Source: Lyophyllum atratum (lineage: Eukaryota; Basidiomycota; Agaricomycetes; Agaricales; Lyophyllaceae). Taken from it: 64,000 nt of DNA. Below, one piece after another: positions 18,638-22,242 of this stretch. Under the pieces are notes generated by a model that saw nothing but the letters and a program-made list of their open reading frames with translations, had not been told where the DNA came from and searched no databases. Location of the stretch: contig JACGCN010000016.1 in assembly GCA_014905825.1 (NCBI GenBank), positions 620,001 to 684,000 on the forward strand, given 5' to 3'. Position numbers and translations under genes: made by a program. Within the stretch, counting starts at the first letter, position 1. Each line of letters opens with the position of its first letter.

Positions 18638-18745
18638 ATGGACTCATTTACCACCATTGCCGACATCATCATCGAGCATATTTCTATCCCTACCAACGGG
18701 GAAGGCAGTGGAACTGGCAACACCACCTACTGCGTTGTCGCTTGA
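18638..18745 (+). CDS. Mating pheromone precursor 1 (CaaX, CVVA)
   Basis: A gene of 35 codons too short for usual gene calling. It starts MDSFTTIADIII and ends GTGNTTYCVVA followed by TGA. The C-terminal CVVA is a CaaX farnesylation box, and the MDSF/MD(S/T)F start, small size and Gly/Thr/Tyr-rich tail are typical of basidiomycete lipopeptide pheromones. By family knowledge, the peptide is farnesylated, trimmed of VVA, methylated, N-terminally cut, and recognised by an STE3-type receptor of a compatible mate. The cut probably falls near GEG-SG, giving about ten residues, but this gene lacks the EE pair of its relatives. DNA after the stop (GAGATACCTCGCGCAACGAC) resembles that of precursor 2, so the two are duplicates. 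Confidence 0.88.
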   Translation: MDSFTTIADIIIEHISIPTNGEGSGTGNTTYCVVA

Positions 18746-20017
18746 GATACCTCGCGCAACGACCCATCTACGACCCTTGTTAATCACCTGTGAGCATTTT
18801 TGATGATGACTTGTAGCGCTACTACCGAACAAACTGACGATATCAACTGACAGAACACATTATTCACGACTATTCGACATCTACACTTCACTTACCTGCC
18901 GCGAGCATGGAACGTTGGGGACGGGGGCGCGCATTGCATTTACCATATCTATCCACTTCGACCTCTTCGTTATTCGATTGTTGTATTATTAGGCTTTTAA
19001 TTGGGGCTGCGTGTATCGTTTTGGGTGTAGAAATACTTTTGGTGCATCACCAATTTCAGCCATATTCCTGATGAAGAGCCGCATCATGGAAAGTAAACGC
19101 GACAAAGCAACGACAACGACGAAGCAAGATTTAGGAAAGCGCGATACACCACATGGAGCAGCAAGGCAGTTGACCATAGGATCCTCGCTTATCGCGATCG
19201 TTGCCTCGAAAGAAATTCAGCCTTTTTGGGATATGTCCCAACGCAGGTGATGAGATGAGGCCTCGAGTTCCGACTCGCTATGCGTAATGAGAAATTTGGG
19301 GTCCGTAGTATAATTCGAGGCTATAATCTGCAGAGGATCGTCTTGAGCAGTGGTCTCGTAAAACATTTGAACAGCCTAAGCCGAGATGAGATGAGGAAGT
19401 CGGAAGATCTATTTGAATTGGTCCTGCCAGCCCGAGATGGGAGTTTATTGTGTTTGGGAGCCGTGTATGTTCTTGAATCTTCAGAGATCGACTAAAGTCT
19501 CCAGAGAAAGATGAACAGTACTTTCTGAGCTAGGCTGCTGCTGTGTGATTACGAACCACGCTGACCTGGAGCTTGGGCGCCACCAACAAATCCACTCTTG
19601 CTTTGTTTCGACGATGCTGCGCGCGTCTTCACAATATACGCAGATCCGATATTGATGATCGGAGATATAAAAACCATGCCTCTCTTGTTCGTGCTCGGCA
19701 ATTTAGGGTTGAGATGTGCGATGAGGGTACTGGCGCACTGCGCTTATTGTCTTTCTTGTTCCTCGCAGCATGCCCGGAAAGGTTATCCGCTTTGCCGACG
19801 GGTCAAGCGCTGGAGAACAATTAGGATAGTCGTCATCGTGCTCGGTCTGCACCGTGATTAAGCATACTCAGCGATACGAGATGCAGGAGGCCGGGGGCCT
19901 GGGCGTATGCTGAAGGTGCATAAAAGGAGGAGTCCAAGTTGACGGTTCTGCAGGCTCCTACAACCCACAAACAGCTCTTCTGCACCGCCCTCACCGTCCT
20001 CACACATCCTCACTACA
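18746..20017. other. Spacer between pheromone genes 1 and 2
   Basis: Holds the 3' region of precursor 1, with a likely 3' UTR intron starting TGTGAGCATT and a ATCCACTTCGACCTCTTCG stretch shared with the other pheromone genes, and the leader of precursor 2. No further pheromone-like tail or receptor reading frame was found. Confidence 0.45.
19917..19926 (+). promoter_or_regulatory. TATA-like box of pheromone precursor 2
   Basis: TGCATAAAAG lies 101 nt before the start codon of precursor 2. The identical ten bases occur 117 nt before precursor 3, so the site is conserved between the duplicates and is a plausible TATA element. Confidence 0.5.
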
Positions 20018-20122
20018 ATGGACTCTTTCATCACCATCACAGCCTTCGAAGACGTCTCCACCATCCCCAAAGAGGAGGAGAGCGGCGGAACTGGCAACAC
20101 CGTCTACTGCGTTGTAGCTTGA
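20018..20122 (+). CDS. Mating pheromone precursor 2 (CaaX, CVVA)
   Basis: A 34-codon precursor. It starts MDSFITITAFEDV and ends GGTGNTVYCVVA followed by TGA. The CaaX box is CVVA. A charged KEEE stretch just before SGGTGNTVYC fits the acidic/charged pair at which basidiomycete precursors are cleaved, so the mature form is probably SGGTGNTVYC with farnesyl cysteine methyl ester (inference). The start codon is fixed by the conserved MDSF opening. The 3' region contains GTGAGTCTGACC and TTCTTCTTCCAG, likely a 3' UTR intron, and is followed by a duplicated copy of its own 3' end at about 20379-20500. Confidence 0.9.
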   Translation: MDSFITITAFEDVSTIPKEEESGGTGNTVYCVVA

Positions 20123-20223
20123 GATACTCGCGCAACTGCCTGGTCTACCATTGCATCGAACCTTGTGAGTCTGACCGATTCTTCTTCCAGATCACTGGCT
20201 GACCAGGTCAAAAGAACACCAAT

Positions 20224-20500
20224 ATCATTATTATCCAACACATCAGCATTTGTCATACCGTGCCAGGCATTCGGAGGAGAACGCACGATGCAGACACAAT
20301 TATTTATTCATTTCGACTTCTTCGTATTTCTTTGGGGGTGGAACGCTTGAGAAGGAAATTAAAATGAATGCTGTATCATGATTATTCGCCACATTAGCAT
20401 TTGTCACACCGTGCCAGGGTTTCGGGGAGGACGGGCGGAGGACGCACGATGCAGACACCATAATTTATTCACTTCGACTTCTTCGTATTCCTTTGGAAGT
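20224..20500 (+). repeat. Tandemly duplicated 3' region of pheromone gene 2
   Basis: The stretch at about 20235-20335 (CATCAGCATTTGTCATACCG to TTCGACTTCTTCGTATTTC) is repeated at about 20386-20496 with clear but imperfect identity (CATTAGCATTTGTCACACCG to TTCGACTTCTTCGTATTCC). The second copy has no pheromone coding part in front of it, so it is either a 3' UTR duplication or the remnant of a lost fourth pheromone gene. Confidence 0.75.
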
Positions 20501-22122
20501 AAGGCATTTCGGAAGCTTTCAAAAGCAGTTAGTTCCGCCAATCAACTTATCTGAAGGTCACCTCATTGGAACCACAGATGGTGGGATCAGGTGAACGAGG
20601 GCGAAAGGCAGATGAAATTTGAATGGTATCGAAGTTGAGGATATGACTCGATCTGATGGGGCTTGGGTGGAACTTCGTGGGATTGTTCCGTTATCGTGGC
20701 GTAGTGGGTGAGAGTTGGAAGCTGTCAGAGAAAGCGCCGGGCCCAGCTTTGGTGCATAACTGAGGAAGTGATAGACTGCGAGTCGGATGATGCGCAAACT
20801 CTTCCTACCAAATTTGGCCTATTTGGTTACGTTGTCTAAAGGCTTTGAGCGTTCACAGGCCCTTGGTGCCCCTTTGCTTGTCCTTCTTCTCGAATCTTGC
20901 TTCCAGCTCATGAAGACCTGAACGACGAGCTCTGGATACTACAAAGACACTCCTTTCAATCAAAATGCTAACTAATCCCCATCTACGACGGCAGTTCGGC
21001 GAGTACCTGGAGCATACTCGAAGTCCGAGCCTACTAACCGAACACCGGTGACTGTTCATCGTGTCGAGCGATATACCTGCCTCGTTGCAAGCGTATGAGG
21101 AATCTACCAAGTTATTCTTATTGTCAAGGACGAATTAGGATGAAATTACACGTCCACTGGAACCGTGGCCATATGCAGCTCTCCTGATCCGACGACTCTT
21201 ATTGTCTTTTCACCATGGCTGACCTCATCTCTGGAATCTGCAATGTTCTATGTTCCTTAGTTCCTGATGGGCATCTTTCTCGCCAATCATCCCCGCATGA
21301 TTTTCTTTCCTGACTGGGATTGGGGTTCGTCGTGCAGGTGTGGAAGTGGTTGTGCAATGAGCTAGTACGTGAGTATGATATGTTCCCTGCCCGATTCTTT
21401 GCTTCTAAGATATTCTCTCAGCTTGCTTCTTTGGTTCTTTGGCCGATGGAGTAACAAGAACCTAGAAGCTATCGCTATCGCAAGCCCTCCGCTCTGGCCG
21501 ACATCACATCTAGACGACATCTTGCTCCACAGCGCGGACGCATGTGGCATGCTTATCCCTCTTCAAGTTTTACCTCAGCCTGTCTTGTCTACGGCCAGTG
21601 TTTTCATGACCAGGCTCGAATTTGAACTTTGCCAGGGGCAAATAGTCATTGTCCTGTGGGCGCTGTGGACGTGATGCGTATTCATCGAACATCGAGATTT
21701 GAGTGCTTTTTGTCTTTCTCTGGTTCTCAACTACTACGCTTGGGGCTCGGAACTCAGCGCATCTCGATTTCTTATTGTTACGAGAGAGATAGCGATCTGA
21801 TTGACTTTCCGTCCAACTTCATGACATTGAGCAGTGACCACCGGCCCGATGAGTCTTATTGTTGTTATTGCACCAGATTGCACCCCCGAGGGACAAAGTT
21901 TAGAACAGCGTGCGGGTGGTTCCTCATGCAATGTGAGGAACAATTACAGCGAATTGGGGGCGTCGTCGACGTGCCCGTACAACTCGGGGATGCTCTGTAC
22001 CATCATGCATAAAAGAAAAAAAATTGGCCAAGTTACGATAAGGATCCCTCACCTCGTCCGCTCCTGCCTCTTTATACTCGCAAATTCCAGACTCCCTCCC
22101 TCTCTACACCCTTCGACGAGAC
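20501..22122. other. Spacer between pheromone genes 2 and 3
   Basis: No recognisable gene on either strand. In particular I find no seven-helix frame that could be an STE3 receptor. Short frames such as the one around 20853-21110 (minus strand) show no family. Confidence 0.45.
22006..22015 (+). promoter_or_regulatory. TATA-like box of pheromone precursor 3
   Basis: TGCATAAAAG, identical to the box before precursor 2, is 117 nt upstream of the start codon. A second candidate, TTTATA, lies at 22071-22076, about 50 nt upstream. Confidence 0.5.
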
Positions 22123-22242
22123 ATGGATTCTTTCACCAACCTCATCAGCTTCTCACCTGCCTCTGAGGTCGAGGACATCACATTTCCAGCTGACGAGGAA
22201 TCCGGAGGCACTGGAAACACGACCTACTGCACTATTGCATGA
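22123..22242 (+). CDS. Mating pheromone precursor 3 (CaaX, CTIA)
   Basis: A 39-codon precursor. It starts MDSFTNLISFSPASEV and ends GGTGNTTYCTIA followed by TGA. CTIA is a CaaX box with the same terminal Ala as CVVA, fitting farnesylation. ADEE precedes SGGTGNTTYC, so the predicted mature peptide has ten residues and differs from that of precursor 2 at one position (T for V before Y). It is the longest and most diverged of the three genes in its N-terminal part. The downstream sequence shares the AATTCGACTTCTTTG stretch with the others. A GTAAGTTCTC donor 3' of the stop suggests a 3' UTR intron. Confidence 0.88.
   Translation: MDSFTNLISFSPASEVEDITFPADEESGGTGNTTYCTIA

What the first reader, a model, noticed from the sequence alone, without database searches (positions are those of the whole stretch)
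18638..22242. Unannotated cluster of three basidiomycete mating-pheromone precursor genes
Three tiny genes at 18638, 20018 and 22123, all on the plus strand, share an MDSF start, a Ser-Gly-(Gly)-Thr-Gly-Asn-Thr-x-Tyr-Cys tail and a CaaX box (CVVA, CVVA, CTIA) immediately before TGA. Such genes fall below normal ORF cutoffs and are routinely missed. By family knowledge they encode farnesylated peptide pheromones that decide mating compatibility. Three near-identical mature peptides suggest duplication within one specificity class rather than three specificities.
Basis: partly seen in the sequence, partly recalled or inferred. Interest (0 to 1): 0.9.

Follow-up and report, generated by a model that had tools for sequence, protein, structure and literature searches.

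The report
Three non-mating-type mushroom pheromone-like genes
A mushroom genome carries three tiny neighbouring genes for lipid-tagged signal peptides of a kind already known from other mushrooms, but they lie away from the mating locus and make the same peptides in both sets of chromosomes, so they probably do not decide who can mate with whom.

Summary
They belong to a dispersed family in a two-haplotype assembly: at least 19 copies at six pairs of loci. The claim that they decide mating compatibility is not supported. No STE3 receptor match lies on their contig (C60) or the allelic one (C70). The locus is collinear between haplotypes (95% over 11 kb) and all three predicted cores are identical in both. 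The same genome has a separate receptor locus (C61/C96) with pheromones that differ between haplotypes. The tails fit the published non-mating-type pheromone-like class (PMC8305134). Allele pairs show 0 nonsynonymous and 8 synonymous codon changes in 144 core codons. Most likely they are prenylated, exported, self-type ligands of a non-polymorphic STE3-like receptor; receptor and role are inferred. The most unusual point lies outside the window: four sister genes encode two cores in one precursor, a layout also found in named Agaricales proteins and resembling rhodotorucine A precursors.

The parts
18638..18745 (+). phe1: single-core pheromone-like precursor, 35 aa, MDSF...GSGTGNTTYC-VVA. No EE/DE pair at the place where phe2 and phe3 have one (NGEG instead); the C60 allele has EH 18 residues before the Cys, the C70 allele has ED there.
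20018..20122 (+). phe2: single-core pheromone-like precursor, 34 aa, MDSF...KEEESGGTGNTVYC-VVA; no base difference from the C70 allele; intact paralogue on C119 and C2
22123..22242 (+). phe3: single-core pheromone-like precursor, 39 aa, MDSF...ADEESGGTGNTTYC-TIA; three synonymous differences from the C70 allele
18790..18853 (+). possible 3'UTR intron of phe1 (GTGAGC...CAG); predicted only
   Evidence: no transcript data
20165..20206 (+). possible 3'UTR intron of phe2 (GTGAGT...CAG); three acceptors are possible, the shortest is given
   Evidence: no transcript data
22281..22333 (+). possible 3'UTR intron of phe3 (GTAAGT...AAG); predicted only
   Evidence: no transcript data
18671..20356 (+). 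segment also present on C119 (91%) and C2 (90%) in reverse orientation; its left edge falls inside phe1, so those copies hold a headless phe1 remnant and an intact phe2

Best explanation
A local cluster of three paralogous precursor genes for non-mating-type pheromone-like lipopeptides of a mushroom (Agaricales, probably near Lyophyllaceae). Inferred mechanism: each 34-39 aa precursor, with no signal peptide visible by eye, is prenylated at the CaaX cysteine, trimmed of the last three residues and carboxymethylated, cut on the N-terminal side near the acidic pair (clear in phe2 and phe3, unclear in phe1), and exported as a glycine-rich lipopeptide of about 10 residues. Both haplotypes encode the same peptides, so the signal is self-type and constant. 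The likely target is one of the STE3-like receptors that do not differ between haplotypes, for growth or development rather than choice of partner. Shown here: the genes, the family, lack of linkage to receptors, identity between haplotypes, conservation of the core. Inferred: prenylation, export, receptor and role.
For: ORFs beyond chance. Family of at least 19 copies at six locus pairs. STE3 matches on C24, C61, C74, C96 and C108 only. Locus collinear between haplotypes, 94.9% over 11,054 bases; gene differences 4, 0 and 3 bases, of which 2 nonsynonymous, both in the phe1 pro-region. Nine allele pairs: core 8 synonymous, 0 nonsynonymous in 144 codons; pro-regions 17 and 8 in 262. Donor-like site within 75 nt after the stop in 19 of 19 copies, as A. 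bisporus precursors have 3'UTR introns (PMC8305134). Tail GGTGN-x-x-YC resembles the quoted consensus GGGSGNGAYC (C. cinerea) and GGGSGNNAYC (L. bicolor). Relatives in other Agaricales.
Against: No expression, peptide or receptor data. Each of the three peptides scores below the PF08015 gathering cut-off of 22 bits (16.6, 16.3, 20.6). phe1 lacks the acidic pair of its sisters. A complete candidate intron (donor, branch-like site, acceptor) was found by rule in only 15 of 19 copies, and the copies are related. That the two haplotypes are compatible nuclei of one dikaryon is inferred.
Confidence: 0.8

Rival explanations
1. They are mating-type pheromones that set mating specificity.
For: MD[SA]F start, CaaX end and PF08015-like tail are shared with the precursors at the P/R locus.
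Against: No STE3 on C60 or C70; cores identical in both haplotypes; a P/R locus with haplotype-specific precursors lies elsewhere.
Confidence: 0.06
2. They are ligands of the mating-type receptors themselves, acting independently of mating type, for instance as a constitutive or fruiting-stage signal. This was raised for A. bisporus (PMC8305134, passage).
For: The A. bisporus authors state that such peptides could activate STE3.2 independently of mating.
Against: In a species with a polymorphic P/R locus a constant self ligand of those receptors would abolish discrimination unless expressed only late; no data here.
Confidence: 0.15
3. Decaying relics of old pheromone genes without function.
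For: The phe1 copies on C119 and C2 are headless remnants; one of the two double-core genes of C130 was not found on C95.
Against: No nonsynonymous change in the core over nine allele pairs; all three window ORFs intact in both haplotypes.
Confidence: 0.06
4. Prenylated peptides with an intracellular, membrane-bound role, never exported.
For: A CaaX box alone does not require export (general knowledge).
Against: The core, more than the pro-region, is conserved, and sister genes encode two near-identical cores per precursor, which fits released ligands.
Confidence: 0.05

Closest known systems
[quoted passage not shown] bisporus, with C. cinerea and L. bicolor consensus, PMC8305134; Pycnoporus cinnabarinus, PMC4101180; passages seen)
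   Same: Short MD[SA]F...CaaX precursors, glycine-rich tail ending YC, unlinked to mating-type receptors, mature peptides alike between strains or haplotypes, probable 3'UTR intron
   Different: Three in one 3.6-kb cluster with GGTGN tails; phe1 lacks the acidic pair; sister genes elsewhere in this genome are double-core
Mating-type (B or P/R locus) pheromones of tetrapolar mushrooms, e.g. Hypsizygus marmoreus PHB1-3 (PMC8686365, passages)
   Same: Precursor layout and CaaX box
   Different: Those lie beside STE3 receptors; the window genes do not, and their cores do not differ between haplotypes
Rhodotorucine A precursors of Rhodosporidium toruloides (described in PMC3068285, passages)
   Same: The double-core sister genes outside the window share tandem cores with a CaaX-like spacer
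   Different: The window genes have a single core; the sister genes have two, with a C-V-[VI]-F-A-[KR] linker

Membership tests
Non-mating-type pheromone-like precursors (Agaricomycetes) | Short ORF with MD[SA]F start and CaaX directly before the stop | tested here: met
   3 of 3
Non-mating-type pheromone-like precursors (Agaricomycetes) | Glycine-rich mature tail like GGGSGNGAYC / GGGSGNNAYC | tested here: met
   GSGTGNTTYC, SGGTGNTVYC, SGGTGNTTYC against the consensus quoted in PMC8305134; comparison by eye
Non-mating-type pheromone-like precursors (Agaricomycetes) | Charged dipeptide before the mature tail | tested here: inconclusive
   phe2 and phe3 have EE; phe1 has NGEG there, with EH (C60) or ED (C70) further upstream
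Non-mating-type pheromone-like precursors (Agaricomycetes) | Not linked to STE3 receptor genes | tested here: met
   41 STE3 matches, none on C60 or C70
Non-mating-type pheromone-like precursors (Agaricomycetes) | Mature peptides alike in different nuclei or strains | tested here: met
   Two haplotypes of one assembly only
Non-mating-type pheromone-like precursors (Agaricomycetes) | Expressed, spliced 3'UTR | not testable with these tools
   Only donor-like sites seen, 19 of 19; candidate full introns 15 of 19
Pfam PF08015 (Pheromone) | Score of at least 22 bits | tested here: not met
   16.6, 16.3 and 20.6 bits for the window peptides; the two C81 double-core sisters score 26.8 and 28.7. Published F. 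velutipes pheromones also had weak Pfam E-values, 0.0013 to 0.45 (PMC3140503)
Mating-type (B or P/R locus) pheromone | Lies beside an STE3 receptor gene | tested here: not met
Mating-type (B or P/R locus) pheromone | Mature peptide differs between compatible haplotypes | tested here: not met
   Identical cores in C60 and C70; that the haplotypes are compatible is inferred from the P/R locus
Rhodotorucine A-type tandem precursor | Several cores in one precursor, separated by CaaX-like spacers | tested here: not met
   The window genes have one core each; sister genes on C81/C24 and C130/C95 have two

The most novel reading that the evidence does not exclude
The window genes are single-core members of a family whose other members are double-core lipopeptide precursors: two near-identical cores joined by an internal CaaX-like box and a basic residue (C-V-[VI]-F-[AS]-[KR] in most, C-V-V-A-[KQ] in others), kept across several Agaricales lineages. 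If the internal box is cut free and prenylated, mushrooms process tandem prenyl-pheromone precursors in the manner of rhodotorucine A, for a signal unrelated to mating type, through a processing enzyme not yet known.
Probability: 0.4. Interest if true: 0.65.

Novelty: new member of a known kind. Interest (0 to 1): 0.42.

Why it matters
It corrects a tempting misreading: pheromone-like genes in a mushroom genome are not by themselves evidence of a mating locus. Conserved ligands that do not differ between haplotypes make an open question testable, namely what the non-mating STE3-like receptors of mushrooms sense, by naming ten candidate genes in one genome. The double-core sister precursors add a precise question (is an internal CaaX box used?) that peptide mass spectrometry can settle.

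Tried and rejected
Chance ORFs: rejected. Mating-type pheromones: rejected on linkage and on identity between haplotypes. Pseudogenes: rejected for the window genes on the core substitution pattern; accepted for the headless phe1 copies on C119 and C2. RNA families over their gathering score and tRNAs in the window: none. A processing gene next door (CaaX protease, methyltransferase, STE6-type transporter): no such Pfam match among the 10 window ORFs scanned, chosen from the 37 stop-to-stop frames of at least 180 aa; the other 27 were not scanned, so this is partial. TATA-like box: seen in 16 of 19 copies, absent in phe1_C60, C69 and C92, against 6% of random 110-nt stretches of the window (the flanks scanned were 150 nt, so the comparison is not like for like); not used as an argument. 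Organism: only inferred from the nearest named database relatives (Tricholomella, Hypsizygus, Lyophyllum); their family names are recalled.

Print: ten library searches and the passages read showed no report of double-core precursors in Agaricomycetes; the string search found only an unrelated 16S paper. The library lacks most subscription papers, and figures and supplements were not seen, so absence from print is not shown. Papers: passages only for PMC8305134 (12 of 13 places), PMC4101180, PMC12387193, PMC8161036, PMC8686365, PMC3068285, PMC9769878, PMC5473757 (12 of 18), PMC13300218 and PMC3140503 (12 of 16); for PMC7329392 the term search found nothing; all others seen as search listings only.

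Full report
OBSERVATION. The three ORFs stand exactly as described: 18638-18745, 20018-20122 and 22123-22242, + strand, 35, 34 and 39 aa, each MDSF...YC-CaaX followed by TGA. Aligned, they share 14 invariant columns, mostly the first four residues and the tail. Two hundred dinucleotide shuffles of the window produced no ORF that starts MD[SA]F and has Cys at -4; the window has three. A looser scan for any short ORF with a CaaX-like end lists further frames in the window; none of them has this start and tail.

GENOME CONTEXT. The window is C60:620001-684000 of a 64.8-Mb, 151-contig assembly. The 6.2-kb stretch around the genes has a second copy on C70 (94%; 94.9% over 11,054 bases), so the assembly appears to hold two haplotypes. 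Within the genes the alleles differ by 4, 0 and 3 bases: two nonsynonymous changes, both in the phe1 pro-region, and five synonymous.

A DISPERSED FAMILY. Protein and Pfam searches of the genome and the fetched loci show 19 copies at six locus pairs: C60/C70 (three single-core genes each), C119/C2 (one single-core gene each), C81/C24 (two double-core genes each), C130/C95 (two double-core genes on C130, one found on C95), C97/C103 and C69/C92 (one single-core gene each; C69/C92 has the most divergent tail, RKGTGMTTYC). That is ten genes, alleles not counted twice. Only best candidates are scored in these searches, so this is a lower bound. C119 and C2 carry a copy of window 18671-20356 at 91% and 90%; its edge falls inside phe1, leaving a tail without the start codon, while phe2 is intact.

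NOT THE MATING LOCUS. STE3 (PF02076) gave 41 exon-wise matches, on C24, C61, C74, C96 and C108, and none on C60 or C70. C61 and C96 are allelic; the first 10 kb of C24 is 99.7% identical to the end part of C96, so C24 seems to continue C96. Between a flank of 87% identity on one side and 93-95% on the other lies a stretch of C61 (about 654 to 661.7 kb) that aligns to C96 only in part, at 72-75%. Precursors in that stretch differ between haplotypes (C61: tails MSFCVVA and NPLAFCVIA; C96: YGTFCTIA and NPIAFCVIA). C61 also has a WCTIS precursor at 653.3 kb for which the same scan listed no C96 counterpart, and a GGYCVVA precursor nearby is identical in both haplotypes. So not every precursor at the P/R locus is polymorphic. 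The divergent stretch is what a mating-type P/R locus looks like; the collinear window locus is not. That the two haplotypes are compatible nuclei is an inference from this. One of the double-core loci (C24:1059-1061 kb) lies on the same contig as part of the P/R locus (C24:2-8 kb), about 1.05 Mb away.

SELECTION. Over nine allele pairs the core plus CaaX codons show 8 synonymous and 0 nonsynonymous codon changes in 144 codons, the pro-regions 17 and 8 in 262. C130b was left out because no allele was found on C95. The core counts come from the pairs C81/C24, C130/C95 and C97/C103; in the three window genes no core codon differs at all. A donor-like GT[AG][AT]G[TC] lies within 75 nt after the stop in 19 of 19 copies against 14% of random 80-nt stretches of the window; the copies are related, so they are not 19 independent cases. 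A full candidate intron was found by rule in 15 of 19.

KNOWN CLASS. [quoted passage not shown] cinerea (GGGSGNGAYC) and L. bicolor (GGGSGNNAYC), and at least three have a 3'UTR intron in ESTs (PMC8305134, 12 of 13 passages). P. cinnabarinus has four precursors that resemble presumed non-mating-type ones (PMC4101180, passages). The F. velutipes authors expected further pheromones away from receptors, unlikely to have a mating-type role (PMC3140503, 12 of 16 passages). The function of non-mating STE3-like receptors is called unknown (PMC8305134); for S. commune a role in self-sensing has been proposed (PMC8161036, passages). The window genes fit this class with two reservations: phe1 lacks the acidic pair of its sisters, and none of the three reaches the PF08015 cut-off alone.

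DOUBLE-CORE SISTERS. C81a, C81b, C130a and C130b each encode two cores, for example ...EEDGGTGNTTYC-VVFAK-EDFPSNEEDGGTGNTTYC-VVA. Three protein searches (E-value limits 10, 1 and 1, so a few hits are weak) returned 40 relatives. With the four own genes that makes 44 sequences (alleles C24a, C24b and C95a left out): 30 double-core, 10 single-core, and 4 without a terminal CaaX, which look like broken gene models and were dropped. Named sources of complete double-core proteins are Tricholomella constricta, Lyophyllum shimeji, Coprinellus micaceus and Hypholoma sublateritium; Hypsizygus marmoreus and Ephemerocybe angulata appear only among the dropped four. In 20 of 30 the two 9-residue cores are identical; mean identity is 94% within a precursor against 63% when second cores are re-paired at random (maximum 72% in 5000 re-pairings). 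Re-pairing ignores relatedness, so it shows co-variation within lineages, not independent events. The internal box is C-V-[VI]-F-[AS]-[KR] in 23 of 30; the other seven have C-V-V-A or C-V-V-T, four of them not followed by K or R within two residues as in the majority form. Two of the three searches used a double-core query, so the share of double-core genes is biased upward. [quoted passage not shown]

VERDICT. In this window it is a new member of a known kind; the double-core relatives are the part that may be new.

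Noticed in passing
L034:4681-4851 and 6482-6649 (C81); L035:5158-5328 and 7102-7269 (C24); L036:753-929 and 2510-2677 (C130); L037:703-879 (C95): Pheromone-like precursors with two cores in one ORF, joined by C-V-[VI]-F-A-[KR]; relatives in other Agaricales.
   Followed up: yes
L037 (C95:128300-131700): The second double-core gene of C130 has no counterpart in the fetched 3.4 kb of C95 or in the genome search; alignment of the two haplotypes stops about 2.2 kb into L036.
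   Followed up: partly
C61:653-672 kb (L022-L024), C96:319-335 kb (L026-L028), C24:1-10 kb (L029): The probable P/R mating locus of this genome: several STE3 genes, haplotype-specific and shared precursors, and a stretch that is divergent between haplotypes.
   Followed up: partly
C119:46966-48667 and C2:80622-82279 (L011, L012): Segmental copy of window 18671-20356 with a headless phe1 remnant and an intact phe2, present in both haplotypes.
   Followed up: yes
window 9984-13848, minus strand: Two long overlapping frames with weak, sub-threshold matches to a tyrosine recombinase (PF00589) and to a viral polymerase C-terminal domain (PF00336); looks like a retroelement with a tyrosine recombinase, a name given from recall.
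   Followed up: no
window 57360-58175 and 59170-60162, plus strand: Two similar protein-kinase frames side by side; the first matches Pkinase, the second was compared by eye only. They look like a tandem duplication.
   Followed up: no
P0003, P0009, P0018, P0019: Public gene models of Hypsizygus, Ephemerocybe and Coprinellus in which the second core is lost or out of frame, probably annotation errors around these tiny genes.
   Followed up: no
window 16611-17411, plus strand: Frame with a sub-threshold match to DUF6540 (22.6 bits, cut-off 27), upstream of the cluster.
   Followed up: no
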